A DNA stretch of 18,420 bases from Campylobacter sp. UBA1713 (GTDB lineage Bacteria > Campylobacterota > Campylobacteria > Campylobacterales > Campylobacteraceae), in contig DCIZ01000012.1 of assembly GCA_002317305.1 (NCBI GenBank), forward strand, positions 1 to 18,420, given 5' to 3'. The position numbers and the translations under genes were made by a program. Below are positions 4,787-18,393 of the stretch, piece by piece (the first letter of the stretch is position 1; each line of letters opens with the position of its first letter). Below the pieces are notes generated by a model, which made no database searches, was not told the DNA's origin, and saw only the letters and a program-made list of their open reading frames with translations.

Positions 4787-4795
4787 GAGGTTTGC

Positions 4796-5444: not shown

Positions 5445-5552
5445 GGGGTCGCAGGGGCGGTAGCCCCCGTCCCACCGTCCCGCTTATGTTTTTCTTTGAG
5501 CTTCAGCGAAAAGCAAAACATAAGCGGGACTACAAAAAAGCGTTAGCTTTTT
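5445..5552. repeat. Structured triple-hairpin element, copy A
   Basis: Order on +: GGGGTCGCA; hairpin 1, GGGGC(ggta)GCCCC at 5454-5467; CGTCCCACC; hairpin 2 with perfect 16-bp arms 5477-5492 and 5515-5530 (GTCCCGCTTATGTTTT and its complement) and a loop containing TTGAGCTTCAGCGAAAA; then hairpin 3, AAAAAGC(gtta)GCTTTTT at 5535-5552, with A- and T-runs like a bidirectional terminator. Homologous to copies at 13818-13918, 17944-18050 and 18282-18389, but with different stem bases. Confidence 0.9.
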
Positions 5553-5558
5553 ACCTAT

Positions 5559-5622
5559 CGGAGTGCGGAGTGCGTTCGGATTGCAGAATGCAGAATTCAG
5601 AATGCAGATTGCGTGCGGAGTG
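5559..5622 (+). repeat. Heptamer tandem repeat, 8 units with two slips
   Basis: cggagtg twice, cgtt, then cggattg, cagaatg, cagaatt, cagaatg, cagattg, cgtg, cggagtg. Followed by a degenerate TTCTCTAGAATCG palindrome. Together with 5311-5435 it brackets structured element copy A on both sides. Confidence 0.85.
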
Positions 5623-5734
5623 CGTAATTCTCTAGAATCGACAAATTTAGAATGTGAAATATATTCGAATCGGAAAACGAAAGATTGGTTTTGCAAATTT
5701 GCAGAATTCTAAAATTTTACATAAAGGAAAAAAT

Positions 5735-6724
5735 ATGAACATTTTGGTTACTGGCGGTGCGGGCTACATAGGCTCGCATGTTTTGAAAGCACTTTTGGAA
5801 AGAGGCGGCGACAACATTACGGTTGTAGACAACTTTTACAGCGGGTCGCAGGATGCGCTTTTGGCACTTCAAAAGGTCGGCAAATTTGAATTTGTCAAGT
5901 GCGACTTGGCGGATTTTGCGGCGGTGGCGGAGGTTTTTAAGGGGCGCAAATTTGACGCTATCATTCACTTTGCAGCCTACATAGAGGTCTTTGAGAGCAT
6001 GCAAAAACCGCTAAAATACTACCTCAACAACACAGCAAACGCAGCGAATCTCATAAAGCTAGCGAGTGAAACGGGAGTTCGTTACTTCATCTTTAGCTCG
6101 ACGGCGGCGACTTACGGCGAGCCAGAGAGTGGCGTGGTGAGCGAGACGAGCCCGCAAAATCCCATCAACCCTTATGGCAAGAGCAAGCTAATGACGGAGT
6201 GGATTCTAAAAGACGCGGCGGCGGCAAACGCAAATTTTAAATTTGGCATCTTGCGCTACTTTAACGTAGCAGGCGCTTCTAGCGATGGGCTCATAGGACA
6301 AAACTACCCAAATGCAACGCACTTAATAAAAGTCGCCGTGCAGACCATCACAGGAAAGCGTGAAAAGATGTCCATTTTTGGCGAGGACTACGCGACAAAA
6401 GATGGCACGTGCGAGCGAGACTACATACACGTCGAGGATCTTGCGAGTGCGCATTTGGCGGTTTTGGACTACTTGCAGGAGAATCCGAGCGACATTTTTA
6501 ACGTAGGTTACGGCAGAGGTTTTAGTGTAAAAGAGGTGGTGGAGTGTGCCAAAAAAGTCGGTGGCGTGGATTTTCGCGTAGACATGGCAGCACGCCGAGA
6601 TGGCGACCCAGCAGTGCTCATCTCAAACGCTGACAAACTTCGCCAAAAGACAAACTGGAAACCGCAACGAGAGAATTTAGAACTCATCATAAAAAGCGCA
6701 CTAGAATGGGAGAAAAAATGTTAA
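5735..6724 (+). CDS. galE: UDP-glucose/UDP-GlcNAc 4-epimerase (GalE/Gne type)
   Basis: A 329-residue cytosolic short-chain dehydrogenase-type epimerase that interconverts UDP-glucose and UDP-galactose and, in C. jejuni Gne, also UDP-GlcNAc and UDP-GalNAc. It would feed lipooligosaccharide, capsule or protein glycosylation. Visible motifs: NAD-binding GGAGYIGSH (7-15), FSSTAATYGEP (120-130) with the catalytic Ser/Thr, YGKSK with Tyr147 and Lys151, RYFNVAGA (174-181) and ERDYIHVEDL (227-236). The sequence resembles C. jejuni Gne as I remember it, so dual specificity is plausible but unproven. ATG 5735 is chosen over an upstream in-frame start (5654) because the Rossmann fold begins at once and AAAGGAAAA lies 6-8 bases upstream. 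The next gene overlaps its 3' end by 7 bases. Confidence 0.93.
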   Translation: MNILVTGGAGYIGSHVLKALLERGGDNITVVDNFYSGSQDALLALQKVGKFEFVKCDLADFAAVAEVFKGRKFDAIIHFAAYIEVFESMQKPLKYYLNNTANAANLIKLASETGVRYFIFSSTAATYGEPESGVVSETSPQNPINPYGKSKLMTEWILKDAAAANANFKFGILRYFNVAGASSDGLIGQNYPNATHLIKVAVQTITGKREKMSIFGEDYATKDGTCERDYIHVEDLASAHLAVLDYLQENPSDIFNVGYGRGFSVKEVVECAKKVGGVDFRVDMAARRDGDPAVLISNADKLRQKTNWKPQRENLELIIKSALEWEKKC

Positions 6725-8163
6725 GCAGAGGCAAGAAAATAGCAGTTTTGGCGGTTTTGGCGGTCGTGGTGGCGCTTTTGGTGGCGAGCTTTGTCGCGGG
6801 GAAGAGGGTGGAAACTGTTGTAAAAACCATCGAGACAAATTCGCTTGCTTTTGCCAAATTTACGCAAGTAAGTAGTGAGCGAGGTTTGTTTTCTTCTCGT
6901 TATGTTGGCGAGATAAAAACAAGTGTCAAAGAGATGGCAAAATTTGCTTTGGGTGAGTGGAGAGCAGATATTTACGCCGAAGAGTCTAACGAGGAGGCGA
7001 CTATTTTTGTAGTAACTATTGATTTTGACCATTCGCCTTTTACGCTTCTTTCTAAATTTGGAATCGTGGCAAATGTTTCTGGCGACTTTGAGAAAAAAGT
7101 TAAAGAAGAAATTCAAAAAGATTTGTCGGAGATGAAAGCATACTTTGAAAAAATATCTGTAGACGGCGTAAAACAAACCATTAAAATATCTCTTTTTGGC
7201 GATGCCACTTTTGATATTTTTGTAAAAAATTTGAAATTTGACTTTTTCGCAGACAAAAATGTTGTTGATTCAAAAATTGACGTTGCTTTGAATGACTGGA
7301 GAACTTTTTTTGTTTTTAACAAAAATTTACAGATGACAAAGTTTAATGCTGATTTGAAAAATTTGGAAATAAAATCAAAATATGCCGTGTCTAGCTTCAA
7401 AGATTTAAGCGGTGTTGTGGATTATGTAAAACCTTTTGATATATTTAAAGATGAGAATCTCAAATATTTTTTAGTTTCGACATTTGTTGACAAATCTAAA
7501 GCAAATTCAATTTGGAAAATAAGAGAGATTGAAGTTTTGGAAGGAAATGAAAAGCTTGTGGTGAGCGACATAAAACTCAAGGAGAGCACAAAAAGAGAGA
7601 ATCATCTTTATGCAAATGATGTTTTAAACATAAAATCACTCTCGTTTAAAAATGAGAGCTTGGCGAGTGATGTGGTGCTTAACTTGACATTAGAGATAAA
7701 CAATTTCAATAAACTTATTGATTTGTGGAGAAATGAGACCTATGGCATTAGTAAACTTAACAAAGAGATGTTAAATGACGAGTTTATGAGAAACATCGAC
7801 ACTAAAATCACGATTTCAAATTTGAGTTTTGTCAGAAAAGATATATTCTCTAAAATGTCAGCTTTTGGACACATAAAAGGCTATAAGGATAAAGAAGCAA
7901 ACAGGGAAGCTTTTGTAAATGCTAGTCTAAAATTTGACGCCAACAGCTCGCTTGAAAACTTTGTAAAGAGTTTTCCAGTGCTAGCTAGTTTTCCGCAGGT
8001 TTTTTCGTTTATAAAAGAGGTAAATGGCAGTAAAATAACGTCTGATTTGAGCTTTGAGGAAGATACCAGAGCCAACACCACAAAGATGTCCATTAACGGT
8101 GTTTTGATAGACGAAAATGCTAAAAACAAAAATGCTAACAGCAGCACAAATGGTGGCAAATAA
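6718..8163 (+). CDS. DUF945 (YdgA-like) family membrane-anchored protein
   Basis: A 481-residue protein with a basic N-terminus (MLSRGKK), one membrane segment at about residues 8-28 and then a long polar region of alternating beta-type segments, presumably periplasmic. The pattern just after the membrane segment (FAKFTQVSSERGLFSSRY, 49-66) with the RGLFSS motif is characteristic of DUF945 proteins such as E. coli YdgA, whose biochemical role is unknown. ATG 6718 is preferred to ATG 6706 because GGGAG (6708-6712) stands at the right distance and the overlap with galE is only 7 bases. The middle of the gene (about 7000-7900) is visibly more AT-rich than its neighbours. A hairpin with a T-run lies 20 bases after the stop and probably ends the galE transcript. 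Confidence 0.8.
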   Translation: MLSRGKKIAVLAVLAVVVALLVASFVAGKRVETVVKTIETNSLAFAKFTQVSSERGLFSSRYVGEIKTSVKEMAKFALGEWRADIYAEESNEEATIFVVTIDFDHSPFTLLSKFGIVANVSGDFEKKVKEEIQKDLSEMKAYFEKISVDGVKQTIKISLFGDATFDIFVKNLKFDFFADKNVVDSKIDVALNDWRTFFVFNKNLQMTKFNADLKNLEIKSKYAVSSFKDLSGVVDYVKPFDIFKDENLKYFLVSTFVDKSKANSIWKIREIEVLEGNEKLVVSDIKLKESTKRENHLYANDVLNIKSLSFKNESLASDVVLNLTLEINNFNKLIDLWRNETYGISKLNKEMLNDEFMRNIDTKITISNLSFVRKDIFSKMSAFGHIKGYKDKEANREAFVNASLKFDANSSLENFVKSFPVLASFPQVFSFIKEVNGSKITSDLSFEEDTRANTTKMSINGVLIDENAKNKNANSSTNGGK

Positions 8164-8182
8164 AACGCGTTGATGTTTTTTG

Positions 8183-8231
8183 CAAGCAAAAAAGGTCGCA
8201 GGGGCGAAAGCCCCCGCTTGTAAATTTTTTT
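8183..8231 (+). terminator. Terminator-like hairpin after the galE operon
   Basis: CAAGC at 8183-8187 pairs with GCTTG at 8216-8220, enclosing a second hairpin GGGGC(gaaa)GCCCC at 8201-8214, followed by TAAATTTTTTT. The inner part GGTCGCAGGGGC...GCCCCCG is the same as hairpin 1 of the structured element, so it may be a reduced copy serving as a terminator. Confidence 0.65.
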
Positions 8232-8264
8232 ACTCTCGTTGTTGCCACCTCTTTTTTTGTTTTT

Positions 8265-8302
8265 AAGTTTGCTTTTATTTAAAAATGCTAGAATCTATTT
8301 TT
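8265..8302 (+). promoter_or_regulatory. Predicted promoter of the purC-purF-purE cluster
   Basis: Extended -10 sequence TGCTAGAAT (8286-8294) downstream of AT-rich, T-phased sequence. A transcript start near 8301 would place a small ORF (8321-8437) and then purC in the leader. No PurR-type operator or known riboswitch was recognised. Confidence 0.5.
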
Positions 8303-8320
8303 GATTCTAAAGGATTTAAA

Positions 8321-8437
8321 ATGCTACCAAAATCTTCTAGTTTAATGTTTCAAATTCGAAATTTTACTTTTAGTTATCACAGCCATTATAGACAAAATTC
8401 TACAAATTCATCTACAACTACAAAACCAAAATTTTAA
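8321..8437 (+). CDS. Possible 38-aa leader peptide upstream of purC
   Basis: ATG 8321 follows AAAGGA (8309-8314) at good distance and opens a 38-codon frame rich in Ser, Thr, Asn and Gln (FSYHSHYRQNSTNSSTTTKP in the middle). Its stop TAA (8435-8437) is part of TAAGGAG, the Shine-Dalgarno of purC at 8447. The position gives a clear arrangement for translational coupling of purC, but the peptide matches nothing I know, and it is not PurS. Could be chance. Confidence 0.4.
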   Translation: MLPKSSSLMFQIRNFTFSYHSHYRQNSTNSSTTTKPKF

Positions 8438-8446
8438 GGAGATTTC

Positions 8447-9154
8447 ATGCAAAAGTTAGAACAACTTTATGAGGGCAAGGCAAAAAAAGTTTTCGCTACA
8501 AGCGATGAGTCGCTAGTCATCGTAGACTACAAAGACGACGCGACAGCGTTTAACGGCGCAAAAAAAGGGCAGATAAAAGGCAAGGGCGTCATAAACAACA
8601 AAATGAGCAACTTTCTCATGAGCGAGCTAGAAAAAGCGGGCGTGCCGACACACTTTGTAAAAGAGCTAAGCGAGCGAGAGACGTTGGTAAAAAAGGTGCG
8701 AATCGTCCCGCTGGAAGTGATCATTAGAAACATCTCAGCGGGCAGTTTTGCGGCGCGTTTTGGTGTCCAAGAGGGAATCAAATTTGAAAAACCGACCATC
8801 GAGTTTTGTTTGAAAGATGACGCACTAAACGACCCGATGCTAGCTGAACCGCACATTTTCGCACTCTCTCTTGCCAGCGAAGCAGAGGTGGAGAGCATCA
8901 AAAAAATGGCGTTTCAGATAAACGACTTTTTACGCAGTTTTTACGCAGAGCTTGGCATAACGCTAGTAGACTTCAAACTCGAATTTGGCAGGCTTTCAGA
9001 CGGGCAGATAGTGCTAGCAGATGAGATAAGTCCAGACACTTCGCGGCTTTGGGACACAAAAACAGGCGAAAAACTAGACAAAGACCGTTTCAGACGTGAC
9101 CTAGGTGGCGTAGAGGGCGCATATGCAGAAGTCGCCAGAAGGCTAGGGCTTTAA
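8447..9154 (+). CDS. purC: Phosphoribosylaminoimidazole-succinocarboxamide synthase
   Basis: A 235-residue cytosolic enzyme that joins CAIR and aspartate with ATP to give SAICAR in de novo purine synthesis. Conserved parts: [10 protein letters not shown] (7-16), the ATP loop; [14 protein letters not shown] (88-101), signature 1; LVDFKLEFG (173-181), signature 2; and [12 protein letters not shown] (192-203). Length is the usual one for the bacterial single-domain form. TAAGGAG stands 5 bases upstream of the ATG. purF begins 1 base after the stop, so the two are coupled. A small ORF upstream may influence its translation. Confidence 0.97.
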
Positions 9155-9155
9155 G

Positions 9156-10517
9156 ATGAGAAAGCTTAACGAAGAGTGTGGCGTTTTTGGCGTTTGTTTT
9201 ACACAAAAAGAGGCAGTCGCGCAGCTTTGCTATTACGGGCTTTTTGCTTTGCAGCACAGAGGACAAGAGGCGGCGGGCATTTGCGTGGCTAGTGGCGGAC
9301 GTTTGCAAACGCACAAAGATGACGGGCTAGTGGGGGATGTCTTTTGTGAGCAGGTTTTGGGCGGTTTTGAGCTGGGCGAGATAGGCATAGGGCACGTTCG
9401 TTACTCGACAACGGGCAGCAAGTGTAAAGAGAACGCCCAGCCCATAGTCGTCAGCCACAAAGCGGGCAACCTAGCCCTAGCACACAACGGCAACCTAACA
9501 AACACAGCGGAGCTAAAAGCCATGTTAGAGAGCACGGGGGCTATATTTCACACCACTAGCGACACGGAGATCATTAGCTATCTCATAACAAAAGAGCGAC
9601 TCTCTAGCCCAAATTTAGAAACCGCCATCTTGCGTGTGATGGGGCAGATAGAGGGCGCTTTTTCTCTCGTCATTACAAACGGACAAAGACTCATAGCGCT
9701 AAAAGATCCGCACGGCTACAGACCGCTTTGTTACGGCAAATTTGCCAGTGGCGGTTACGTCGTGGCTAGTGAAAGCGCGGCACTTGACGCTGTGGGAGCG
9801 ACTTTTGTAAAAGAGCTAGATGCAGGCGAGATGGTCATCTTTGAAAATGGGCAGGTGCGAAGTGTGCGTGAATTTTGTGGCGTAAAAAAGGGCAAAATTT
9901 GCGCCTTTGAGTTTATCTACTTTGCGCGACCAGATAGCGTAATAGGCGGCGTGAGCGTGCACAATGCGCGTGTGCGAGCGGGTGAAATTTTAGCCACTCG
10001 ACATCCAGTAGATGCTGACCTCGTCATAGGCGTGCCAGACTCGGGGCTTGAAGGGGCGATGGGCTACGCAAAGCAGAGTGGTTTGCCTTTGGAATTTGGT
10101 TTTTTGAAGAATCGCTACATAGGGCGAAGTTTCATAGGACCTACACAAAAGAGCCGTGAAAACATGGTCAGCATAAAGCTAAATGCGGTGCGTTCGGTGG
10201 TAGAGGGAAAGAGGCTGGTAGTCATAGACGACTCTGTCGTGAGAGGGACGACTAGCAAACGCACGGTGGAGATCTTGCGGCGTGCGGGCGCAAAGGAGAT
10301 TCACATGCGAATCACCGCGCCGCAGTTTGTGAGCCCGTGTTTTTGGGGAATCGACATAGACGACAGGGCGAACTTAATAAGCGCTAAATTTGGTTTGGAC
10401 GAGATAGCGCGGTTTGTCGGCGTAGATTCTTTGGGGTTTTTGGAGCTTGAAGACCTAAACGAAATTTGTGGCGGCGAGGAGCACTGCAATGCGTGTTTTG
10501 TGCGCGAGGAGAACTGA
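9156..10517 (+). CDS. purF: Amidophosphoribosyltransferase
   Basis: A 453-residue enzyme for the first committed step of purine synthesis, PRPP plus glutamine to phosphoribosylamine. The short propeptide MRKLNEE precedes Cys8, which becomes the N-terminal nucleophile of the glutaminase domain; HRGQEAAG (34-41), GHVRYSTTG (79-87) and HNGNLTN (110-116) follow. The PRPP-binding loop is VVIDDSVVRGTTSKR (355-369). Cys249, Cys395, Cys444 and Cys447 fit the four ligands of the [4Fe-4S] cluster in the Bacillus-type enzyme, so this is the iron-sulphur form with a processed propeptide. It follows purC by one base. Its stop codon lies within a heptamer-like unit (CTGAAAA), and that short repeat bridge continues to purE. 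Confidence 0.97.
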   Translation: MRKLNEECGVFGVCFTQKEAVAQLCYYGLFALQHRGQEAAGICVASGGRLQTHKDDGLVGDVFCEQVLGGFELGEIGIGHVRYSTTGSKCKENAQPIVVSHKAGNLALAHNGNLTNTAELKAMLESTGAIFHTTSDTEIISYLITKERLSSPNLETAILRVMGQIEGAFSLVITNGQRLIALKDPHGYRPLCYGKFASGGYVVASESAALDAVGATFVKELDAGEMVIFENGQVRSVREFCGVKKGKICAFEFIYFARPDSVIGGVSVHNARVRAGEILATRHPVDADLVIGVPDSGLEGAMGYAKQSGLPLEFGFLKNRYIGRSFIGPTQKSRENMVSIKLNAVRSVVEGKRLVVIDDSVVRGTTSKRTVEILRRAGAKEIHMRITAPQFVSPCFWGIDIDDRANLISAKFGLDEIARFVGVDSLGFLELEDLNEICGGEEHCNACFVREEN

Positions 10518-10540
10518 AAACATAGAACGGAGAAAAATAG
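10514..10540 (+). repeat. Short heptamer-like bridge between purF and purE
   Basis: ctgaaaa, catagaa, cggagaa, then aaatag and the purE ATG. The first unit contains the purF stop codon TGA and the third gives the purE Shine-Dalgarno (GGAG at 10529-10532). Confidence 0.55.
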
Positions 10541-11032
10541 ATGAAAGTTGGAGTGGTTTTAGGAAGTAAGAGCGATGTGGCTTTGATGAAGGGTTGTTTT
10601 GAGACACTTAGCGAATTTGGCGTGGCGTTTGAGGCGCACATATACTCGGCACACAGGACGCCAGAAAAGGCGCATGAGTTTGCACGGAGTGCTAGAGAGA
10701 AGGGCTTTGGCGTGCTAGTAGGAGCTGCTGGCATGGCGGCGCACTTGGCGGGTGCTTTGGCGGCGGTGAGCACTTTGCCAGTCGTGGCGGTGCCTTTGGC
10801 AAGTCAAAACGCAAATTTGGGCGGGCTAGATGCTTTGCTTGCTAGCGTTCAGATGCCGAGTGGCGTGCCAGTGGCGACAGTGGCGGTAAATGGCGCAAAA
10901 AATGCAGCTTTGTTAGCTGTGCAGATTCTCTCGCTTTCAGATGAGAGTTTGGCACAAAAGCTAGCGGCGGCAAAGGCAAAAAATGCGGCGGACGTTTTGG
11001 AGGCGGATGCAAATTTGCAAACTGAATTCTGA
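10541..11032 (+). CDS. purE: N5-carboxyaminoimidazole ribonucleotide mutase
   Basis: A 163-residue enzyme that moves the carboxyl group of N5-CAIR to C4 to give CAIR, the substrate of PurC. Class I PurE motifs: GSKSDVALM (8-16), the phosphate/CO2 site with Ser10 and Asp12; SAHRTPEK (41-48) with the catalytic His43; GAAGMAAHLAG (61-71). Length is normal. The start is fixed by GGAG 8 bases upstream. In most bacteria this class works with PurK, which is not in the window. The stop codon is again inside a CTGAAAA heptamer and a short array continues downstream. Confidence 0.96.
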   Translation: MKVGVVLGSKSDVALMKGCFETLSEFGVAFEAHIYSAHRTPEKAHEFARSAREKGFGVLVGAAGMAAHLAGALAAVSTLPVVAVPLASQNANLGGLDALLASVQMPSGVPVATVAVNGAKNAALLAVQILSLSDESLAQKLAAAKAKNAADVLEADANLQTEF

Positions 11033-11063
11033 AAACGGAAAACGGAGTACGGAATGCAGAATT
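11029..11063 (+). repeat. Heptamer tandem repeat containing the purE stop codon
   Basis: ctgaaaa (with purE TGA at 11030-11032), cggaaaa, cggagta, cggaatg, cagaatt, all in 7-bp phase. Confidence 0.82.
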
Positions 11064-11128
11064 TAAAAAATTTACTTTTGGCTAAATTTTAACGATTCTT
11101 GATAAAATTTAAAAAAGCAAAAACAGAA

Positions 11129-11262
11129 CGCCGTCATTCTGAGGGAGCGTTAGCGACCCGAAGAATCCCCTGAAATTTGAGCTAGTAGAATCGTTAAATT
11201 TACGAAAAAACGAATTTGTAGATTCTTTTCCCTCAAAAGGCGGGGGATTCTTCGGTCGGTAA
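11129..11262. repeat. Inverted-arm element with truncated right arm
   Basis: The left arm (11129-11172) is intact, starting CGCCGTCATTCTGAGGGAGC and ending AATCCCCTG. The right arm begins GGCGGGGGATTCTTCGGTCGG (from 11239) but jumps straight to TAACGG, so about 24 bases present in the full copy at 14077-14118 are missing. Confidence 0.85.
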
Positions 11263-11297
11263 CGGAAAACAGAATGCGGAAAACAGAAAAAAGAATT
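11263..11297 (+). repeat. Heptamer tandem repeat, 5 units
   Basis: cggaaaa, cagaatg, cggaaaa, cagaaaa, aagaatt, followed by TGTAAAATTTGC. Same position relative to an inverted-arm element as the arrays at 3285 and 14123. Confidence 0.85.
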
Positions 11298-11329
11298 TGT
11301 AAAATTTGCTTTTTCGTAAATTTGTTTGT

Positions 11330-11345
11330 CGATTCTATAGAATCG
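11330..11345. repeat. GATTCTAYAGAATC palindrome
   Basis: CGATTCTATAGAATCG is a perfect 16-bp palindrome at the outer border of the repeat block. Near-identical copies are at 13735-13750 and 13941-13955. Confidence 0.8.
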
Positions 11346-11391
11346 CAGAATCTGCATTCTGAACGCATTTTTGCATAACTAGGAGCAAAAA

Positions 11392-12015: not shown

Positions 12016-12018
12016 AAG

Positions 12019-13053
12019 ATGAGAAAGGCGTATGAGGCAAGCGGCGTAAATGTCGAGGCAGGTTATGAGGCGGTTGAGCGCATAAAAAGCCACGCGGCTA
12101 GGACAAAAGTGCCGGGCGTGCTGGGCGGACTGGGCGGTTTTGGTGGGCTTTTTGAGCCAAATTTAAGTGGCATAAAAGAGCCTGTTTTTGTGAGCGGGAC
12201 AGATGGCGTGGGGACAAAGCTAAAGCTTGCGTTTTTGCTAGACAAACACGACACAGTCGGCATCGACTGCGTGGCGATGTGTGTAAATGACGTGGTTTGT
12301 GGCGGTGCAAAGCCTTTGTTTTTTTTGGACTACATAGCGGTGGGCAAAAACTCGCCTGCGCAAGTCGAGGAGATAGTAAAAGGCATAGCAGACGGGTGCG
12401 TGGAGGCGGGCTGTGCGCTGGTGGGTGGCGAGACGGCGGAGATGCCGGGCTTTTACCCTGTGGGCGAATATGACGTGGCGGGCTTTTGCGTGGGCGTGGT
12501 AGATAAGTCAAAGATTCTCACGCCAGAGCGTATGCGTGAGGGCGATGCGGTGCTAGCGCTTGCATCTAGCGGCGTGCATAGCAATGGCTTTTCGCTTGTG
12601 AGGCGTGTTTTTGGGCTGGACGGTGAGGAGGCAAAGGCAAATTTGAGTGAGCGGTTTAGTGAGCTAGGCGGTGAGAGACTAGGCGACGTGCTTTTGACGC
12701 CAACGCGAATTTATGTGCGTGAGGTTTTGAGGCTTTTTGAGGCGGGCGTGCTAAATGGTGCGGCGCACATTACAGGTGGCGGGTTTTTTGAAAATGTGCC
12801 GCGATGTTTGGGCGATGGCTTTGGCGTGGAGGTGGAGCGTGAAAAGGTGCGAGTTTTGCCTATTTTTGAGCTTTTGACAAAGCGAGCGGGGCTTTGTGAC
12901 GTGGAGGCGTTTTCTACCTTTAACATGGGCGTGGGAATGGTTTTTGTAGTGCCACGTGAGCGTGTGAGCGAGGCTTTTGCGCTGGTGCCAGAGCTTTATG
13001 AGATAGGGCGAGTGGTAAAGGGCAGTGGTGTAAATTTGAAAGGCGCAAGATGA
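12019..13053 (+). CDS. purM: Phosphoribosylformylglycinamidine cyclo-ligase (AIR synthetase)
   Basis: A 344-residue cytosolic enzyme that closes the imidazole ring, converting FGAM to AIR with ATP. It has the PurM/ThiL-type ATP-binding fold: GTDGVGTKLKLA (60-71), VNDVVCGGAKPLFFLDY (89-105), LVGGETAEMPG (134-144), SSGVHSNGFSLVR (183-195), ITGGGFFENVPR (251-262) and FNMGVGM (301-307). Length is normal. AAGGAG stands just upstream, inside the end of the channel gene. The stop overlaps the purN start (ATGA), typical of tight coupling. Together with purN, purF, purE and purC it covers half of the IMP pathway. Confidence 0.97.
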   Translation: MRKAYEASGVNVEAGYEAVERIKSHAARTKVPGVLGGLGGFGGLFEPNLSGIKEPVFVSGTDGVGTKLKLAFLLDKHDTVGIDCVAMCVNDVVCGGAKPLFFLDYIAVGKNSPAQVEEIVKGIADGCVEAGCALVGGETAEMPGFYPVGEYDVAGFCVGVVDKSKILTPERMREGDAVLALASSGVHSNGFSLVRRVFGLDGEEAKANLSERFSELGGERLGDVLLTPTRIYVREVLRLFEAGVLNGAAHITGGGFFENVPRCLGDGFGVEVEREKVRVLPIFELLTKRAGLCDVEAFSTFNMGVGMVFVVPRERVSEAFALVPELYEIGRVVKGSGVNLKGAR

Positions 13054-13649: not shown

Positions 13650-13658
13650 TGTGTAGTG

Positions 13659-13732
13659 CGGAGTTCGGAAAACGGAAAACGGAAAGCAGAAAACGGAGCA
13701 CGTGCGGAATGCGGAATGCGGATTGCGGATTT
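13659..13732 (+). repeat. Heptamer tandem repeat, 10 units
   Basis: cggagtt, cggaaaa, cggaaaa, cggaaag, cagaaaa, cggagca, a 4-base slip cgtg, then cggaatg, cggaatg, cggattg, cggattt. It ends three bases before the palindrome CGATTCTACAGAATCG. Confidence 0.88.
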
Positions 13733-13734
13733 TG

Positions 13735-13750
13735 CGATTCTACAGAATCG
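13735..13750. repeat. GATTCTAYAGAATC palindrome
   Basis: CGATTCTACAGAATCG, with one central mismatch from perfect symmetry. Followed by TCAAATTCACGAAAAAGCAA, which is the reverse complement of the linker seen after other arrays. Confidence 0.78.
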
Positions 13751-13779
13751 TCAAATTCACGAAAAAGCAAATTTTCACA

Positions 13780-13814
13780 AATTCTGTTTTCTGTTTTCCG
13801 CACTCTGTTTTCTG
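13780..13814 (-). repeat. Heptamer tandem repeat in reverse orientation, 5 units
   Basis: On + it reads aattctg, ttttctg, ttttccg, cactctg, ttttctg. With the linker and palindrome to its left it forms the same module as 11263-11345 but inverted. Confidence 0.85.
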
Positions 13815-13817
13815 AAT

Positions 13818-13918
13818 GCAGGGGCGTAGCCCCCGTCCGCCCGTCCCGCCGCCGTTTTCTTTTGAGATTTATCGAAAAAGAAAACGGTGGCGGGACATTT
13901 AAAAAGCAATAGCTTTTT
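13818..13918. repeat. Structured triple-hairpin element, copy B
   Basis: Hairpin 1 GGGGC(gta)GCCCC at 13821-13833; hairpin 2 arms 13843-13858 (GTCCCGCCGCCGTTTT) and 13881-13896 (AAAACGGTGGCGGGAC), 15 Watson-Crick pairs and one G-T pair, loop with TTTTGAGATTTATCGAAAAAG; hairpin 3 AAAAAGC(aata)GCTTTTTT at 13901-13918. Confidence 0.88.
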
Positions 13919-13940
13919 TGTGCGGAGTGCGGAGAATTAT

Positions 13941-13955
13941 GATTCTACAGAATCG
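13941..13955. repeat. GATTCTAYAGAATC palindrome
   Basis: GATTCTACAGAATCG, placed between a two-unit heptamer remnant and the left arm of the full inverted-arm element. Confidence 0.75.
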
Positions 13956-13964
13956 TCAAATCAA

Positions 13965-14118
13965 CGCCGTCATTCTGAGGGAGCGACAGCGACCGAAGAA
14001 TCCCCTGAAATTTTAGTAAGTAGAATCTTTAAATTTGCTTTTTCGTAAATTTGACTTTTTGACTTGCTTCAAAAGGCAGGGGATTCTTCGGTCGGCTTTC
14101 GCCCTCAGAATGACGGCG
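13965..14118. repeat. Inverted-arm (MITE/REP-like) element, complete copy
   Basis: A 154-bp element. The left arm 13965-14007 starts CGCCGTCATTCTGAGGGAGC and ends GAATCCCCTG; the right arm 14077-14118 is its near-perfect reverse complement, differing mainly in the small GCGACAGC versus GCTTTCGC inner motif, where each arm is itself a mini-hairpin. The 69-bp interior is AT-rich with TAGAATC and TTTGCTTTTTCGTAAATTTG. No transposase and no clear target duplication at the ends. Confidence 0.92.
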
Positions 14119-14122
14119 GTAA

Positions 14123-14157
14123 CGGAAAGCGGAAAACGGAATGCGGAAAACGGAATT
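14123..14157 (+). repeat. Heptamer tandem repeat, 5 units
   Basis: cggaaag, cggaaaa, cggaatg, cggaaaa, cggaatt, separated from the inverted-arm element by GTAA as at 3281 and 11259. Confidence 0.87.
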
Positions 14158-14277
14158 TGTGAAAATTCGCTTTTTGTAAATTTTGCTTTTTTGATGTTTG
14201 ACAAAACTCCAAATTCAGCCATTTTAAAGCACTTTTAAAGTAACATAAAGGCAAATTTAACAAAAAGGACAAAAAAG

Positions 14278-14919
14278 ATGATTCTAGACCTCCTTTTGGA
14301 AGCGACTTTGCAAACACTCTACATGACTTTTGTCTCTACCTTTCTAGCCTCTATTTTGGGACTTTTTCTAGCCGTCATTTTGGTGCTGACAAAAGATGGC
14401 GGACTTTTGCCAAACCGCCTCATCTTTCGCACGCTAGACGCTGTCGTAAACTGCCTCCGAAGTTTTCCGTTCATCATCTTGATCATCGTTTTGTTTCCGT
14501 TTACAAAACTACTCGTTGGCACTAGCATCGGCACGACTGCAGCCATCGTCCCGCTCGTCATAGGCTCGGCGCCATTTGTTGCACGACTCATAGAAAACGC
14601 CATGAACGAAGTCGACAGCGGCGTGGTAGAAGCAGCGCTTAGTTTTGGGGCGAGCAGAAGCCAGATCATCTTTCGTGTCATTTTGGTCGAGGCGTTGCCG
14701 TCCATCATAAACGCCATTACGCTTACTCTCATCGTTATCGTAGGTTTTACGGCGATGGCGGGCACTGTGGGCGGTGGCGGACTGGGCGACGTGGCGATGC
14801 GTTATGGCTTTCAGCGCTTCCGTCCAGATGTGATGCTCTACACCGTGCTCATTCTCATTTTCATCGTTCAGCTGATTCAAATGTGCGGAAATTTGCTTTA
14901 CAAACTTACGAAAAAGTAA
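14278..14919 (+). CDS. metI: Methionine ABC transporter permease (MetI type)
   Basis: A 213-residue inner-membrane permease with five or so membrane segments. The EAA loop that contacts the ATPase is at about 118-144 (VEAALSFGASRSQIIFRVIL). GSAPFVARLIENAM (96-109) and AGTVGGGGLGDVAMRYGFQR (161-180) are strongly characteristic of MetI of the D/L-methionine uptake system. AAGGA (14264-14268) supports the start. The usual partners metN (ATPase) and metQ (binding lipoprotein) are not beside it: upstream lie 628 bp of repeats, downstream azlC and azlD. The partners may be elsewhere, or the locus may have been broken up by repeat-mediated rearrangement. Confidence 0.88.
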   Translation: MILDLLLEATLQTLYMTFVSTFLASILGLFLAVILVLTKDGGLLPNRLIFRTLDAVVNCLRSFPFIILIIVLFPFTKLLVGTSIGTTAAIVPLVIGSAPFVARLIENAMNEVDSGVVEAALSFGASRSQIIFRVILVEALPSIINAITLTLIVIVGFTAMAGTVGGGGLGDVAMRYGFQRFRPDVMLYTVLILIFIVQLIQMCGNLLYKLTKK

Positions 14920-14947
14920 ATTTGCGGTGCGGAAAGCGAAAAAAAAT

Positions 14948-15604
14948 ATGAAAGATATCATAAAAAGCACATTTCCCGTTTTTGTAGGCTACACTTCGCT
15001 TGGCATCGCCATGGGCATCTACGGCGTGGGCGTGGGTGTTAGCCCGTGGTGGATTCTCCTCATGAGCGTGGTCGTTTACGGCGGTGCTGCGCAGTTTTTG
15101 TTAGCTGGGCTCATCGCTGCTGGTGCGGGCGTGCTAGAAATTTTCGTGGCTATATTTTTGCTAAATGTGCGGCACATTTTCTACACACTTACGCTTTTGG
15201 AGAGTTTCAAAAAACTTCGCTTTCGCTACTACTCCATCTTTGCGCTCACAGATGAGACTTTTGCTCTGCTAAAAGCGCGCGACTACCCGGACGACAAACT
15301 CGATCTGGCTTTTAACCTCACTTGCGGGCTAAACCAAATTTACTGGGTGCTCGGCACTTCGCTCGGCGGTTTTTTAAGTGCGCATTTGGGGCTTACGCTA
15401 AAAGGCGTAGAGTTTAGTCTAACCGCACTTTTTATCGTTTTGTTTTATGAGCTTTTTAGACAAAATCGCGACTTTCGCCTACTCTTGCTCGGCGTTTTTT
15501 GCGCTTCTGTTAGCGTTTTTGTCGTTAGCAAAGAGTATTTTTTGGTCTTTTCTCTACTTCTTTCTGTGGTGGCACTTCTTTTGATGCAAAGGTGGTTAAG
15601 ATGA
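14948..15604 (+). CDS. azlC: AzlC family branched-chain amino acid exporter subunit
   Basis: A 218-residue membrane protein with the AzlC pattern: an N-terminal FPVFVGYTSLGIAMG, VYGGAAQFLLAGL and LLNVRHIFYTL, followed by DETFALL and hydrophobic segments to the C-terminus. AzlC works with the small AzlD as an amino acid efflux pair. ATG 14948 is chosen; a GTG at 14927 is in frame but would add a basic 7-residue tail. The ribosome binding site appears to be GGAAAG within a heptamer remnant (CGGAAAG, 14930-14936), a little far from the ATG. It lies 28 bases behind metI and overlaps azlD by ATGA. Confidence 0.85.
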   Translation: MKDIIKSTFPVFVGYTSLGIAMGIYGVGVGVSPWWILLMSVVVYGGAAQFLLAGLIAAGAGVLEIFVAIFLLNVRHIFYTLTLLESFKKLRFRYYSIFALTDETFALLKARDYPDDKLDLAFNLTCGLNQIYWVLGTSLGGFLSAHLGLTLKGVEFSLTALFIVLFYELFRQNRDFRLLLLGVFCASVSVFVVSKEYFLVFSLLLSVVALLLMQRWLR

Positions 15605-15900
15605 TTTGGGCAGTTTTGAGTGCGGCGTTTGCGATGATTTTGACACGGTTTTTGGCGTATTGGTTTTTAAAAGATGTCCGCTCGCCACTTTTGTCTTTTT
15701 TGCAAAAAAATATGGGACTTGTCATCATGGTCGTTCTCATTTTTTACACGCTTAGCCCCTATGAAGCTAGTTTTAACATGGCGACTTTTCACATTTTGGC
15801 GTGTGCTTTTTTGGCGCTTGTTTTACAAATTTGGCTAAAAAGCCCGCTCATCTCCATCGTTTTGCCTACTTGTGTTTATATTTTGTTGGTAAATTATTAA
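15601..15900 (+). CDS. azlD: AzlD family branched-chain amino acid transporter subunit
   Basis: A 99-residue protein with about three or four membrane segments, typical in size and position for AzlD, the small partner of AzlC. The start ATG 15601 overlaps the azlC stop by four bases and follows AAAGGTGG; a GTG nine bases earlier is less likely. The internal Thr-Arg near the N-terminus (ILTRFLAYW) fits the family. tlyA begins 9 bases after the stop, suggesting one transcript from metI to tlyA. Confidence 0.83.
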   Translation: MIWAVLSAAFAMILTRFLAYWFLKDVRSPLLSFLQKNMGLVIMVVLIFYTLSPYEASFNMATFHILACAFLALVLQIWLKSPLISIVLPTCVYILLVNY

Positions 15901-15909
15901 AGGAAACTA

Positions 15910-16656
15910 ATGCGTTTAGACCTTTTTGTTAGCGAAAAATTTGGCATCAGCCGTAACCAAGCCAGCGAGCAGATAAGACGCATGGCAGTCAGCGTAAATG
16001 GCACACTCATCTCAAAACCAGCCTTTGTGGTGAAAGAGGGCGACGAGGTGGTGCTTTTGGGCGAGCTTTTTGTGGGGCGTGGTGCGCTGAAACTTTTGCG
16101 TTTTTTGGAGAAAAGCGAGCTACTTGTGGCGGGCAAAAATGCGCTAGACGTGGGCGCAAGCACGGGCGGTTTTACGCAGGTTTTGTTGCAAAAAGGCGCT
16201 TTGAGCGTAACGGCACTGGACGTGGGCACTTCGCAGCTTTCGCCACTTTTGCGAGATGACTTGCGTGTAAAAGTGGTGGAAAAATGTGATGTTAGGGAGT
16301 TTGCAAACGCTTTTTTGACAAATTCAAATTTGCCACTTTTTCTGCCCGAAAAACCTTTTGACCTCGTTGTAGCAGACGTGAGTTTTATCTCTGTTTTGCA
16401 AATTTTGCCATCTTTGGATGCGCTTTTTAGTGGCGATGTGGTGGTGCTTTTTAAGCCGCAGTTTGAGGTGGGAAAAGAGGCAAAACGTAACGCAAACGGC
16501 GTAGTCAAAGACCAAAAAGCTACGCTTGTGGCGATGCGGCGTTTTGAGAGAGAGGCGGGCGTGTTGGGCTGGATTTTGCGTGAAAAACGTGAGTGCGAAC
16601 TGCTTGGCAAAAGTGGAAATCTCGAATTTTTCTATCGTTTTTCAAAAGAAAAGTGA
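15910..16656 (+). CDS. tlyA: TlyA family rRNA (cytidine-2'-O)-methyltransferase
   Basis: A 248-residue enzyme with an S4 RNA-binding domain (about 1-60: MRLDLFVSEKFGISRNQASE then VNGTLISKPAFVV) and a Rossmann-fold methyltransferase (about 60-248). The SAM loop is LDVGASTGGFTQ (79-90), followed by DVGTSQL (104-110), ADVSFIS (155-161), FKPQFEVG (181-188) and GNLEFFYRF (236-244). Family members methylate 2'-hydroxyls of cytidines in 16S and 23S rRNA; loss gives capreomycin resistance in mycobacteria, and the C. jejuni homologue affects motility and biofilm as I recall. AAAGGAAAC just upstream sets the start. It ends convergently with hemD. Confidence 0.93.
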   Translation: MRLDLFVSEKFGISRNQASEQIRRMAVSVNGTLISKPAFVVKEGDEVVLLGELFVGRGALKLLRFLEKSELLVAGKNALDVGASTGGFTQVLLQKGALSVTALDVGTSQLSPLLRDDLRVKVVEKCDVREFANAFLTNSNLPLFLPEKPFDLVVADVSFISVLQILPSLDALFSGDVVVLFKPQFEVGKEAKRNANGVVKDQKATLVAMRRFEREAGVLGWILREKRECELLGKSGNLEFFYRFSKEK

Positions 16657-16719
16657 TAAATTTGACTTATTTGCATCTATAAATTTATGTCATAACTATG
16701 GTGTAAAAAGTCAAATTTA
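16657..16719. repeat. 12-bp inverted repeat after tlyA, possible weak terminator
   Basis: TAAATTTGACTT at 16657-16668 is the exact reverse complement of AAGTCAAATTTA at 16708-16719, separated by 39 AT-rich bases. It starts on the base after the tlyA stop codon. The stem is AT-rich and the loop long, so terminator function is uncertain. Confidence 0.45.
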
Positions 16720-16756
16720 CTAAAAAGCGAATTTGTAAATTCTTTGCCCTTACCAG

Positions 16757-16797
16757 ACAGGCGATTCTTCGCTTCGCTAACACTCATAATGACGGTG
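16757..16797. repeat. Solo right arm of the inverted-arm element
   Basis: AGGCGATTCTTCGCTTCGCT followed by AACACTCATAATGACGGTG is a diverged right arm; no left arm is present. It lies in the short convergent gap between tlyA and hemD. Confidence 0.65.
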
Positions 16798-16820
16798 TTG
16801 CATGACTTTTTTATATTTTA

Positions 16821-17507
16821 TTACAGCTTACTCAAATTTAGAATCTCCTCTATACATGCGTTTAGTTTTGTTTTTTGACAAATGTAAGCGGTCGCGTGAG
16901 TGGTTTCGTGCTCGTTTATGGCGCGTGCTGTCGTCTTGCCGATGGCGTAGGCGTGGTAGCTCTCCTCCCAGCCAAAGTGCCACAAAAACGCCTCAAAATT
17001 TAGCGGACTTGTAAAAAGAATTTGCGCGTTTTTTGGTGGCTTTTGGCTTTTTAAAAGCGGTGAGTGCGGCAAGATGGCGTTTTGGTAGCCCACGACTTCT
17101 TTTACAAAAACGTCATTTTTTCGTAAAAATTCGCCCAGCTCAAAGGCGACTTTTTGTGCTCTAATCAAAAGTAGTCGCGGTTTTTCTCCCTCTTTTTTCT
17201 CGTTTTTAAAAATTTGTTCGAGTAGTTCGCACTTAAAAGTCGCCGCGTCTCCAGCACCTGCAAAAACTTCGGCAAAACCTGCCTCTGTCGCTGCTTTTGC
17301 AGTCGCTTCGCCTACGCAAAAAGCGCACGTTTTGCGAAAGTGGCTTTGTTGGCAAAATGCACGCACGCCGTTTTTGCTGGTAAAGACTACGCCGTCAAAA
17401 CTAGGCACATCGGCGGTTTCAAAGGCGAAAAATTTGACTTCGCAAAGTTTTAGGTGAGTTGTCTTTGGCGTGGCGTCAAAAGGTGTGTTTGAGACTATGT
17501 AGAGCAT
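16821..17507 (-). CDS. hemD: Uroporphyrinogen-III synthase
   Basis: A 228-residue cytosolic enzyme that cyclises and inverts ring D of hydroxymethylbilane to give uroporphyrinogen III, the branch point for haem and sirohaem. HemD is poorly conserved, but the typical anchors are visible: DGVVFTSKNGVRAF (38-51), ILFTSPLNFEAFL (163-175) and AIGKTTARAI (188-197), in two domains as expected. ATG 17507 is chosen over an upstream in-frame ATG (17555) because the fold starts at MLYIVSNTPF and AAAGAGG stands at the right distance; the longer version would overlap crcB. It starts 14 bases after the crcB stop, in one minus-strand transcript. Confidence 0.82.
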   Translation of the reverse strand: MLYIVSNTPFDATPKTTHLKLCEVKFFAFETADVPSFDGVVFTSKNGVRAFCQQSHFRKTCAFCVGEATAKAATEAGFAEVFAGAGDAATFKCELLEQIFKNEKKEGEKPRLLLIRAQKVAFELGEFLRKNDVFVKEVVGYQNAILPHSPLLKSQKPPKNAQILFTSPLNFEAFLWHFGWEESYHAYAIGKTTARAINEHETTHATAYICQKTKLNACIEEILNLSKL

Positions 17508-17521
17508 GGTTTTTCCTCTTT

Positions 17522-17890
17522 TTAGAGTAGTTTTTGTAGCCAAAATCCCGCACAAACAGCGAGGAGTCCGAGTGCGAAATTTGCCACAGAAAAGAGTAGG
17601 GCGGTGAAAAATTCGCCGTTTTTTAAAAGCGTGAAAGTTTGTAGCGAAAATGTGCTAAAAGTGGTTAGTCCGCCTAAAAAACCGCTCATGACGAGCACTT
17701 TTGTCGCGCCACTTATGCTGCTAGCTGCCACGATGCCCGCTAAAAACGAGCCGAGCAAATTTACCGCTAGCGTCCCGCTCCAAAATGCCCCAAAGCTTTT
17801 TACCACAAAGCTGTCTAGTAAGAATCTCACAAGAGTTCCGACACCGCCGCCAAAAAACGCACAAGATGCGTATAGAATGTAAGTTTTCAT
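17522..17890 (-). CDS. crcB: Fluoride channel CrcB/Fluc
   Basis: A 122-residue inner-membrane protein with four membrane helices that forms a dual-topology fluoride channel and removes fluoride. All conserved motifs are present: GGGVGTLVRF (14-23), GTLAVNLLGSFLAG (39-52) with the conserved Asn44, and GFLGGLTTFSTFS (70-82) with the Phe residues lining the pore. A single gene is enough for a homodimer. No normal Shine-Dalgarno is visible before the ATG; instead the coding strand carries long A-runs interrupted by single C's right up to the start. No fluoride riboswitch was recognised upstream. hemD follows 14 bases downstream. Confidence 0.92.
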   Translation of the reverse strand: MKTYILYASCAFFGGGVGTLVRFLLDSFVVKSFGAFWSGTLAVNLLGSFLAGIVAASSISGATKVLVMSGFLGGLTTFSTFSLQTFTLLKNGEFFTALLFSVANFALGLLAVCAGFWLQKLL

Positions 17891-17915
17891 TTTTTTTTGT
17901 TTTTTTGTTTTTTTG
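17891..17915 (-). repeat. Homopolymer T/A runs directly before crcB
   Basis: On +, T8-G-T7-G-T7-G follows the crcB start codon complement. On the crcB strand this is three A-runs of 7-8 separated by C, ending at the ATG, where a Shine-Dalgarno is expected. Such tracts are prone to length change. Confidence 0.85.
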
Positions 17916-17943
17916 TTGTAGTTTGACTTTTTTGTATTTAGGT

Positions 17944-18050
17944 AAAAATCTAACGCTTTTTTGTTTCTCTTGTCGCCGTTTTTTTAAGCCCAAAAACTCA
18001 AAAAAAAACGGCAGCGGGACCGGGATACTGGGACAGTCCCCTGCGACCCC
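17944..18050. repeat. Structured triple-hairpin element, copy C (inverted, decayed)
   Basis: Reading on the minus strand: GGGGTCGCA, hairpin 1 as GGGAC(t)GTCCC (18030-18040), then the GTCCCGCTGCCGTTTT arm, whose partner is only partly complementary, and a damaged hairpin 3 (AAAAAGCGTTAGATTTTT). Hairpin 1 has kept pairing with a different sequence from the other copies. Confidence 0.75.
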
Positions 18051-18053
18051 TTT

Positions 18054-18074
18054 CGGAAAACAGAATGCGGAATG
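18054..18074 (+). repeat. Heptamer tandem repeat, 3 units
   Basis: cggaaaa, cagaatg, cggaatg, then the AT-rich AAAAATTCATTAAAATTAG and the first left arm. Confidence 0.75.
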
Positions 18075-18110
18075 CAAAAATTCATTAAAATTAGAAAAAG
18101 CAAAAACAAA

Positions 18111-18213
18111 CGCCGTCATTCGCAAGGGAGCGTAAGCGACCGTTTTAACAAAATGCGAAACGCAAGTGCCACGCCGTCATTCGCAAGGGAGCAAAGCGAC
18201 CGAAGAATCCCCT
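18111..18213. repeat. Two tandem left arms of the inverted-arm element
   Basis: CGCCGTCATTCGCAAGGGAG at 18111 is followed by CGTAAGCGACCG and stops; a second arm starts at 18173 with the same bases and continues to GAAGAATCCCCTG at 18213. No right arm follows in the window. These belong to the TTCGCAAGGG sequence subtype rather than TTCTGAGGG. Confidence 0.82.
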
Positions 18214-18281
18214 GAAATTTGATTTAGTAAAAAGCCAAATTCACGAAAAAGCAAATTTTACAAATTCCGCTTTCCGTATGT

Positions 18282-18389
18282 AAAAAGCTAACGCTTTTTT
18301 TGTAGTCCCGCCGCCGTTTTTCTTTTCGCTAAAGCTCAAATAAAAACGGCGGCGGGACGGTGGACGGGGGCTACCGCCCCTGCGACCCC
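18282..18389. repeat. Structured triple-hairpin element, copy D (inverted)
   Basis: On +: hairpin 3 AAAAAGC(taac)GCTTTTT at 18282-18299; hairpin 2 with perfect 17-bp arms 18305-18321 (GTCCCGCCGCCGTTTTT) and 18342-18358; hairpin 1 GGGGC(tacc)GCCCC at 18367-18380; then TGCGACCCC. On the minus strand it is almost identical to copy A outside hairpin 2. Confidence 0.92.
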
Positions 18390-18393
18390 GTTT

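What the first reader, a model, noticed from the sequence alone, without database searches (positions are those of the whole stretch)
5445..18389. Structured repeat family with compensatory stem changes (copies A-D)
Four dispersed copies share the same layout: a GGGGTCGCA lead, small hairpin 1, a long hairpin 2, and an AAAAAGC-loop-GCTTTTT hairpin 3. Copies A (5445-5552) and D (18282-18389, inverted) are nearly identical outside hairpin 2, yet the inner stem is TTATG/CATAA in A and CGCCG/CGGCG in D, still perfectly paired over 16-17 bp. B has one G-T pair. In C, hairpin 1 is GGGAC/GTCCC instead of GGGGC/GCCCC. Paired changes on both arms indicate selection for structure, or spread by a mechanism that copies hairpins. 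Could be an RNA motif, a bidirectional terminator cassette, or a REP-type mobile element.
Basis: partly seen in the sequence, partly recalled or inferred. Interest (0 to 1): 0.75.

Follow-up and report, generated by a model that had tools for sequence, protein, structure and literature searches.

The report
Rewritten-stem hairpin repeats in Campylobacter relative
One Campylobacter-like genome carries roughly 250 scattered copies of a short three-hairpin DNA element whose long middle hairpin differs in sequence from copy to copy yet stays almost perfectly paired, which suggests that one arm is repeatedly copied onto the other rather than being repaired by slow selection.

Summary
Stretches of the same genome (559 kb of 1.71 Mb, chosen around hits) hold 192 lead/hairpin-1 sites; 174 have hairpin 2. 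Scaling a lead pattern suggests about 257 genome-wide. None of the 192 midpoints lies in an ORF of 200 aa or more. No congener (0 of 15) matches the model. Lead, hairpin 1 and hairpin 3 are conserved. Hairpin 2 is not: 125 different left arms in 165 N-free copies, but 3245 of 3340 pairs are Watson-Crick. A GA...GA apex sits at its tip. Both-arm changes outnumber one-arm changes on minimum trees of 134 copies (115-130 against 47-65). G·T and A·C mispairs are equal (33 and 31), which argues against RNA selection on one strand. Best reading: a species-specific, REP/REPIN-like dispersed element whose long stem is rewritten by DNA-level arm copying (template switching). How it spreads is unknown: no Y1 transposase, reverse transcriptase or resolvase was found in this draft. 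Selection on a DNA hairpin needed for mobility is not excluded. New variant of a known kind.

The parts
5445..5453 (+). copy A, lead GGGGTCGCA
   Evidence: sequence
5454..5467 (+). copy A, hairpin 1 (GGGGC-GGTA-GCCCC)
   Evidence: sequence; DNA fold
5477..5530 (+). copy A, hairpin 2: 21-nt arms GTCCCGCTTATG.../...CATAAGCGGGAC around apex GAGCTTCAGCGA
5535..5552 (+). copy A, hairpin 3 (AAAAAGC-GTTA-GCTTTTT)
   Evidence: sequence
13821..13833 (+). copy B, hairpin 1 (GGGGC-GTA-GCCCC); its lead is GAATGCA, not GGGGTCGCA
13843..13896 (+). copy B, hairpin 2, one G.T pair, apex GAGATTTATCGA
13901..13918 (+). copy B, hairpin 3 (AAAAAGC-AATA-GCTTTTT)
17946..18050 (-). copy C, degenerate: lead 18042-18050, hairpin 1 about 18030-18041, hairpin 2 partly paired (17974-18020), hairpin 3 mismatched
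   Evidence: 85.4 bits; z -1.16
18282..18299 (-). copy D, hairpin 3
18305..18358 (-). copy D, hairpin 2: GTCCCGCCGCCG.../...CGGCGGCGGGAC, apex GAGCTTTAGCGA
18367..18380 (-). copy D, hairpin 1 (GGGGC-GGTA-GCCCC)
18381..18389 (-). copy D, lead GGGGTCGCA

Best explanation
This is a species-specific, dispersed, intergenic hairpin repeat of about 108 bases, REP/REPIN-like in behaviour. Order: lead, hairpin 1, long hairpin 2, hairpin 3. SHOWN: 192 lead sites located; conserved lead, hairpin 1, hairpin 3 and (in most copies) a GA...GA apex; hypervariable but paired hairpin-2 arms; paired changes more frequent than one-arm changes. INFERRED: the arms stay paired because, during DNA synthesis, the polymerase switches template inside the folded hairpin and writes one arm from the other (quasipalindrome correction / template switching), so a change on one arm is either erased or turned into a paired change in one event. 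INFERRED: the element spread as a non-autonomous mobile element whose conserved lead, hairpins 1 and 3 and apex are recognised by an unidentified machinery, while only the shape of the stem matters.
For: Family size and shape. Covariation on 150 copies: 24 of 36 pairs change on both sides, 655 both-side cells against 147 in shuffles, 98.6% of cells paired (the alignment was fitted to the model, so it leans towards the structure). Copies defined by the lead alone: 3245 of 3340 hairpin-2 pairs Watson-Crick, 125 distinct left arms in 165 copies. Trees of 134 copies, over the 16 positions nearest the apex: 115 paired against 65 one-arm changes even when a paired change costs two steps; 17 tree edges consist of exactly one paired change, 26 of one one-arm change. 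For 9 of those 17 the changed 7-mer is private to one of the 134 copies. Paired changes cluster in adjacent runs (25 against 15.8 expected, 8 of 2000 simulations), and 54 of 128 are transversions, which cannot pass through G-U. Hairpins 1 and 3 have similar one-arm load (1.6%, 1.9%; hairpin 2 2.6%) but almost no paired changes (0.2%, 0.5%; hairpin 2 18.6%) (from the table, leaving out the G-T/G-C closing pair of hairpin 1). Independent double hits would give about 0.2 restored pairs (rough). G-T equals A-C (33, 31). One copy (L182:195-302) has its apex inverted against the lead, a footprint of template switching (PMC8794818, passages read). The mechanism is established in E. coli (PMC7202029, abstract and passages read).
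Against: Mobility is not demonstrated: no target-site duplication stands out, no empty site was compared, no enzyme identified. The single inverted apex may be an assembly artefact (11 of 192 copies have N there or nearby). The script counts a second one, in L115, but that copy is a palindrome with leads on both strands and reads normally from the other side, so it is no evidence; confidence was lowered by 0.02 for this. The trees are minimum spanning trees, not dated phylogenies; cells and edges are not independent events, and recombination with another copy, including copies outside the set, can import both arms at once. The GA...GA apex with a covarying two-base-pair mini-stem is too short for arm copying and speaks for some selection on the folded form. 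The G-T/A-C control is small (tRNA 9:1, Fisher p 0.036).
Confidence: 0.53

Rival explanations
1. Selection on the folded DNA hairpin. The element moves as single-stranded DNA and only copies with a well-paired hairpin 2 are mobilised, so ordinary step-by-step compensatory changes accumulate. No arm copying is needed.
For: [quoted passage not shown] The GA...GA apex and its covarying mini-stem recur in most copies. Tail-to-tail doublets recall REPINs: 17 tail-to-tail and 2 head-to-head within 600 bases lead to lead, against 11 and 22 at 1200 or more (Fisher p 1e-4).
Against: Tree edges of exactly one paired change are not much rarer than edges of one one-arm change (17 and 26). 54 of 128 paired changes are transversions. 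Adjacent runs exceed expectation. No Y1 transposase found.
Confidence: 0.28
2. A structured RNA (small RNA or mRNA 3' element) under selection for its secondary structure.
For: Strong covariation; conserved tandem G.A-type internal loop at the apex.
Against: G.T 33 and A.C 31, where tRNA acceptor stems of the same genome show 9 and 1. Orientation to codirectional genes 46 and 31. At least 151 model matches in one species and none in 15 congeners. No Rfam family over its cut-off in the window.
Confidence: 0.1
3. Bidirectional transcription terminator cassette spread for that function.
For: Intergenic (0 of 192 midpoints inside ORFs of 200 aa or more); hairpin 3 has A and T tracts on both sides; hairpin 1 of copy E is listed as terminator-like on the minus strand.
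Against: Copies between convergent genes are 23 of 116, against 37 of 190 for gaps of 130 bases or more and 52 of 392 for all adjacent pairs; 16 lie between divergent genes. Hairpin 3 of A-D is not listed by the terminator scan, which found 35 sites where shuffles give 30.4; hairpin 2 lacks a T run.
Confidence: 0.05
4. Assembly artefact: chimeric joins in a repeat-rich draft create apparent variety.
For: 160 contigs; N in or near hairpin 2 of 11 of 192 copies; 15 of the matches listed begin within 200 bases of a contig's first base; one palindromic copy in L115 may be chimeric.
Against: A wrong join inside a stem would mismatch the arms, not match them; the window copies show no N and lie in one 25-kb contig.
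Confidence: 0.03

Closest known systems
REPINs / REP sequences (Pseudomonas, E. coli; RAYT-associated)
   Same: Many species-specific extragenic palindromic copies; conserved ends with a variable middle that keeps pairing; inverted doublets (PMC3116915, passages)
   Different: Three hairpins with unlike ends and no GTAG tag at an end; no Y1/RAYT gene found in the genome; stem arms vary almost completely
CGTC-tagged REPs (PMC3733652, passages)
   Same: Dispersed palindromes without a known dedicated transposase
   Different: CGTC-REP stems are 8-9 bp with 4-5 base loops; here the stem is about 21 bp with an apex of 11-13 bases. A separate family in this window looks more like a CGTC-REP
Quasipalindrome correction / template-switch mutation (E. 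coli reporters, PMC7202029; RNA stems, PMC8794818)
   Same: One arm of an inverted repeat copied onto the other in one event; multi-base paired changes; apex inversion
   Different: In the passages read: single hotspots or reporters, and RNA genes compared across species; here it would act on well over a hundred copies of one element inside one genome
Integron attC sites
   Same: Shape-conserved, sequence-variable stem with conserved ends (recalled)
   Different: The window copies lie singly between housekeeping genes, not in cassette arrays; integron integrase not searched

Membership tests
REP / REPIN (GTAG-tagged, RAYT-mobilised) | Y1 (RAYT) tyrosine transposase in the genome | tested here: not met
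   PF01797: 0 matches in the own genome, control rings in 5 of 14 genomes; the draft is 97.5% complete, so a missed gene is possible
REP / REPIN (GTAG-tagged, RAYT-mobilised) | GTAG tetranucleotide at one end of the palindrome | tested here: not met
   GTAG occurs in the hairpin-1 loop of some copies; others have GAA, GAAA, TTG and more
REP / REPIN (GTAG-tagged, RAYT-mobilised) | High copy number, extragenic | tested here: met
   192 sites in 559 kb, 0 midpoints inside ORFs of 200 aa or more
REP / REPIN (GTAG-tagged, RAYT-mobilised) | Inverted doublets as unit | tested here: inconclusive
   Tail-to-tail doublets over-represented at short range, but of 110 neighbouring pairs in the stretches only 28 are within 600 bases
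CGTC-REP | CGTC tag at one end, 8-9 bp stem, 4-5 base loop | tested here: not met
   Hairpin 2 stem about 21 bp, apex 11-13 bases; CGTC adjoins the stem base in copies A, B and D but is not at the element's end
MITE of a DDE transposase | Terminal inverted repeats and target-site duplication | tested here: not met
   Ends are unlike each other; among 151 copies no direct repeat, of the offsets compared with swapped flanks, exceeds their maximum
Known structured RNA | Match to a curated Rfam family | tested here: not met
   In the window no match reaches a gathering score; the best sub-threshold ones are mostly miRNA models
Template-switch (quasipalindrome) mutation | Paired changes more frequent than one-arm changes, multi-base runs | tested here: met
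Template-switch (quasipalindrome) mutation | Apex inversion | tested here: inconclusive
   One clear case among 174 copies (L182), possibly an assembly artefact; the second case is a palindromic copy and does not count
Template-switch (quasipalindrome) mutation | Event seen within a lineage in one step | not testable with these tools
   Only one genome of the species is held

The most novel reading that the evidence does not exclude
The element replicates through a folded single strand whose conserved GA...GA apex primes snap-back synthesis, so that each round of copying rebuilds one arm from the other: a class of mobile DNA that keeps its shape and freely rewrites its sequence.
Probability: 0.1. 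Interest if true: 0.88.

Novelty: new variant of a known kind. Interest (0 to 1): 0.62.

Why it matters
Paired changes in a hairpin are usually read as proof of selection for structure. Here 165 readable copies from one genome give a within-genome record in which single paired steps are nearly as easy to find as single one-arm steps, G·T equals A·C, and two short hairpins of the same element serve as internal controls. That makes the question 'selection or template switching?' directly testable, and it warns that covariation alone is not evidence for an RNA.

Tried and rejected
Rfam: only sub-threshold, implausible matches in the window. Y1 transposase (own genome: none; genus: 0 of 16 over the cut-off, one 24-aa fragment in G006), reverse transcriptase (none), serine resolvase (none). 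Y2 transposase: no match, but the control rang nowhere, so this says nothing. TnpB: one 432-aa TnpB at G000:C9 over its cut-off; its 5-kb contig holds no element of this family and I saw no similar hairpin downstream of the gene; not linked. Outer stem formed by the flanking heptad arrays: flank complementarity is not copy-specific (real 9.3, swapped 8.9-10.0), rejected. Target-site duplication: 151 copies, 14 x 14 offsets and lengths 3-7; the three best offsets of each length were compared with swapped flanks, and a few equal but none exceeds the swapped maximum. One query (copy D) against plasmids and phages and one exact 25-base pattern against viral contigs: no match. Phylum sample (397 genomes): the only other match, G391, is a different G+C-rich repeat without the lead. 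The purM scan of named genomes did not name the organism, and a search with the 485-aa protein at 6706-8163 found only itself. Selection-only and RNA-only readings are kept as rivals.

Limits: the 80 stretches were chosen around model matches, so density is biased upward; copy number is scaled from a four-base-loop pattern (175 in the stretches, 234 in the genome). Searches scored at most 150 first-look candidates per genome; searches scored 25 and 9 per genome with stricter filters, so weak relatives could be missed. Dropped before counts: 192 sites, 174 with hairpin 2, 165 of these without N, 134 in the trees. Tree ties are broken at random, so totals differ slightly.
Full report
What is there. 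The plan is: lead GGGGTCGCA, hairpin 1 GGGGC-loop-GCCCC, a short linker, hairpin 2, a short linker, hairpin 3 AAAAAGC-loop-GCTTTTT. Copy B has a different lead (GAATGCA) and copy C is degenerate. A, B and D fold as single-stranded DNA with z-scores of -7.9, -7.9 and -7.6; C does not stand out (-1.2).

How many. A covariance model of the four copies (R1) has 151 matches in the genome; only 150 of 1989 first-look candidates were scored. I took 80 stretches around matches. With the window and three other loci they make 84 sources and 559,484 bases, which gave 310 model matches at E 0.01 or better, many of them echoes on the opposite strand of the palindrome. A search by lead and hairpin 1 alone, blind to hairpin 2, found 192 sites; 174 of these have a hairpin 2 of score 8 or more and 165 of the 174 are free of N. 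The lead pattern with a four-base loop (up to three mismatches) occurs 175 times in the stretches and 234 times in the genome, so about 257 copies are expected genome-wide.

Where. None of 192 sites has its midpoint in an ORF of 200 aa or more, although such ORFs cover 67% of the bases. With a looser gene definition (100 aa) 41 fall into ORFs of 101-179 aa, which I take to be spurious. Of 116 with two neighbouring genes, 77 lie between codirectional, 23 between convergent and 16 between divergent genes; gaps of 130 bases or more are 119, 37 and 34. Orientation to codirectional genes is 46 to 31. Neighbouring copies closer than 600 bases (lead to lead) are mostly tail to tail (17, with 2 head to head and 9 same), unlike distant ones (11, 22, 38 at 1200 or more) (Fisher p 1e-4). 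In 158 copies, upstream flanks carry heptads YWYTCYG (265, against 64 in the other orientation) and downstream flanks the inverse (260 against 12), but the two flanks are not complementary copy by copy.

Who has it. Among 16 genomes of the genus only the own genome matches the model; a pattern search gives 234 matches in the own genome and one three-mismatch match in G013, whose reversed control also gives one. In the family it is 1 of 153. In a phylum sample it is 2 of 397, the other being a weak match to a different repeat. No match for one copy in plasmids and phages, nor for one exact pattern in viral contigs. Two congeners sampled at 200 kb each have 6 and 5 hairpins of score 13 or more, against 176 in 559 kb here (the stretches here were chosen around hits, those were not, and the congeners have 33% G+C against 45%). 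For the window's lytic transglycosylase the best relative is 47% identical and unnamed; the named ones among the 120 listed are Campylobacter or Campylobacteraceae, the first of them at 42%.

The hypervariable stem. In 165 copies there are 125 different left arms, yet 3245 of 3340 arm pairs are Watson-Crick. The tip usually reads TTT-GA-nn-loop-nn-GA-AAA: a tandem GA/GA internal loop closing a two-base-pair mini-stem that itself changes in pairs (GA/TC, GC/GC, AC/GT); 134 of the 165 pass a filter for that tip and arms of 16 or more. On the alignment of 150 copies 24 of 36 pairs have both-side changes, with 655 cells against 147 in shuffles and 67-112 in slid structures. Because that alignment was fitted to the model, I rely more on the lead-defined set.

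Paired changes in one step. On minimum spanning trees of 134 copies (16 positions nearest the apex), paired changes outnumber one-arm changes: 130 against 47 if a paired change costs one step, 115 against 65 if it costs two, with 5-6 positions changed on both arms but not paired. Edges with a single event are 23 paired and 20 single, or 17 and 26. For 9 of the 17 paired ones the changed 7-mer is private to one of the 134 copies, for 10 of the 26 single ones too; copies outside the set could still be donors. Of 128 paired changes 54 are transversions. Adjacent paired changes are 25 against 15.8 expected (8 of 2000). A rough expectation for independent double hits is 0.2. Hairpins 1 and 3, which have a similar one-arm load, show 0.2% and 0.5% paired cells against 18.6% in hairpin 2. 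G·T and A·C mispairs are 33 and 31 (binomial p 0.90); acceptor stems of 14 tRNA genes give 9 and 1 (Fisher p 0.036).

Mechanism. An RNA acting from one strand should tolerate G·U far more than A·C; that is not seen. Step-by-step compensation should leave many one-arm neighbours and few one-step paired neighbours. Both are better explained by an event that copies one arm onto the other. That is what template switching at quasipalindromes does in E. coli (PMC7202029, abstract and passages) and what Monttinen and Loytynoja propose for RNA stems (PMC8794818, abstract and passages), including multi-base paired changes and loop inversion. One copy here (L182:195-302) has an inverted apex, but it may be an assembly artefact, since 11 of 192 copies have N in or near hairpin 2. 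A second case counted by the script, in L115, is a palindrome with leads on both strands and is no evidence. Long arms are needed, which would explain why hairpins 1 and 3 do not behave so (inference). Selection on the folded DNA probably adds to it: the apex is kept, and REPINs show compensatory changes in a variable middle (PMC3116915, passages). Loop types of hairpins 1 and 3 are not associated with the base, tip or distal part of hairpin 2 (z -0.7 to 0.9), whereas base and tip of hairpin 2 are with each other (z 7.6), so hairpin 2 is inherited or exchanged as a unit.

Mobility. Dispersal to many unrelated intergenic sites in one species implies spread, but no enzyme was found: Y1, RVT_1 and resolvase gave no match, and the Y2 search is uninformative. 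DDE transposases were not searched. A lone TnpB exists without elements in its contig. No target-site duplication stands out. The mechanism of spread is therefore unknown.

Known or new. Searches of the held library listed no paper whose title or abstract start describes this element; most subscription papers are not held. Papers seen: PMC8794818 (outline, abstract, passages), PMC3116915, PMC1590033, PMC3733652, PMC8266576, PMC2267715 and PMC7202029 (passages); all others as search listings. It works like a REPIN-type repeat in distribution and like a template-switch hotspot in its stem, but fails the defining tests of REP/RAYT membership (no GTAG end tag, no Y1 gene found). I file it as a new variant of a known kind.

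Noticed in passing
window 3285-3311, 5313-5430, 5555-5610, 11026-11060, 11258-11290, 13655-13730, 14116-14160, 18389-18420: Arrays of a degenerate 7-base unit (YWYTCYG / CRGARWR). Three units in a row match 883 times (overlaps counted) in the own genome and never in 15 congeners. Next to the hairpin element the upstream units are mostly in one orientation and the downstream ones in the other.
   Followed up: partly
window 207-400, 3230-3280, 11128-11260, 13964-14123, 18112-18222: Second palindromic family CGTCATTCTGAGGGAGCG...CGAAGAATCCCC, which looks like a CGTC-tagged REP as described in PMC3733652 (passages read).
   Followed up: no
L233 (G000:C9) 3697-4995, minus strand: Lone 432-aa TnpB: general model NF040570 over its cut-off, best model IS200_TnpB below that model's own cut-off, in a genome with no detected Y1 TnpA. 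The gene begins 23 bases from a contig end.
   Followed up: partly
L234 (G000:C82) 362-3436: A 1024-aa protein matching PADLOC Cas12a models strongly (716.7 bits) but no NCBIfam family at E 0.001; possibly a divergent Cas12a.
   Followed up: no
window 12019-13053: purM: the best loci found by a scan of named genomes are Bacillota (Clostridia, Streptococcus; up to about 60% identity); possible horizontal transfer. The genome stretches have 45% G+C, two congeners 33%.
   Followed up: no
L115 1388-1506: A copy that is one long palindrome: lead, hairpin 1 and hairpin 2 followed by inverted hairpin 1 and lead instead of hairpin 3; either a recombinant or a chimeric assembly.
   Followed up: partly
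window 1-108, 3945-4016, 3067-3125: 12-base tandem repeats; 3067-3125 lies inside the minus-strand ORF 2493-3146.
   Followed up: no
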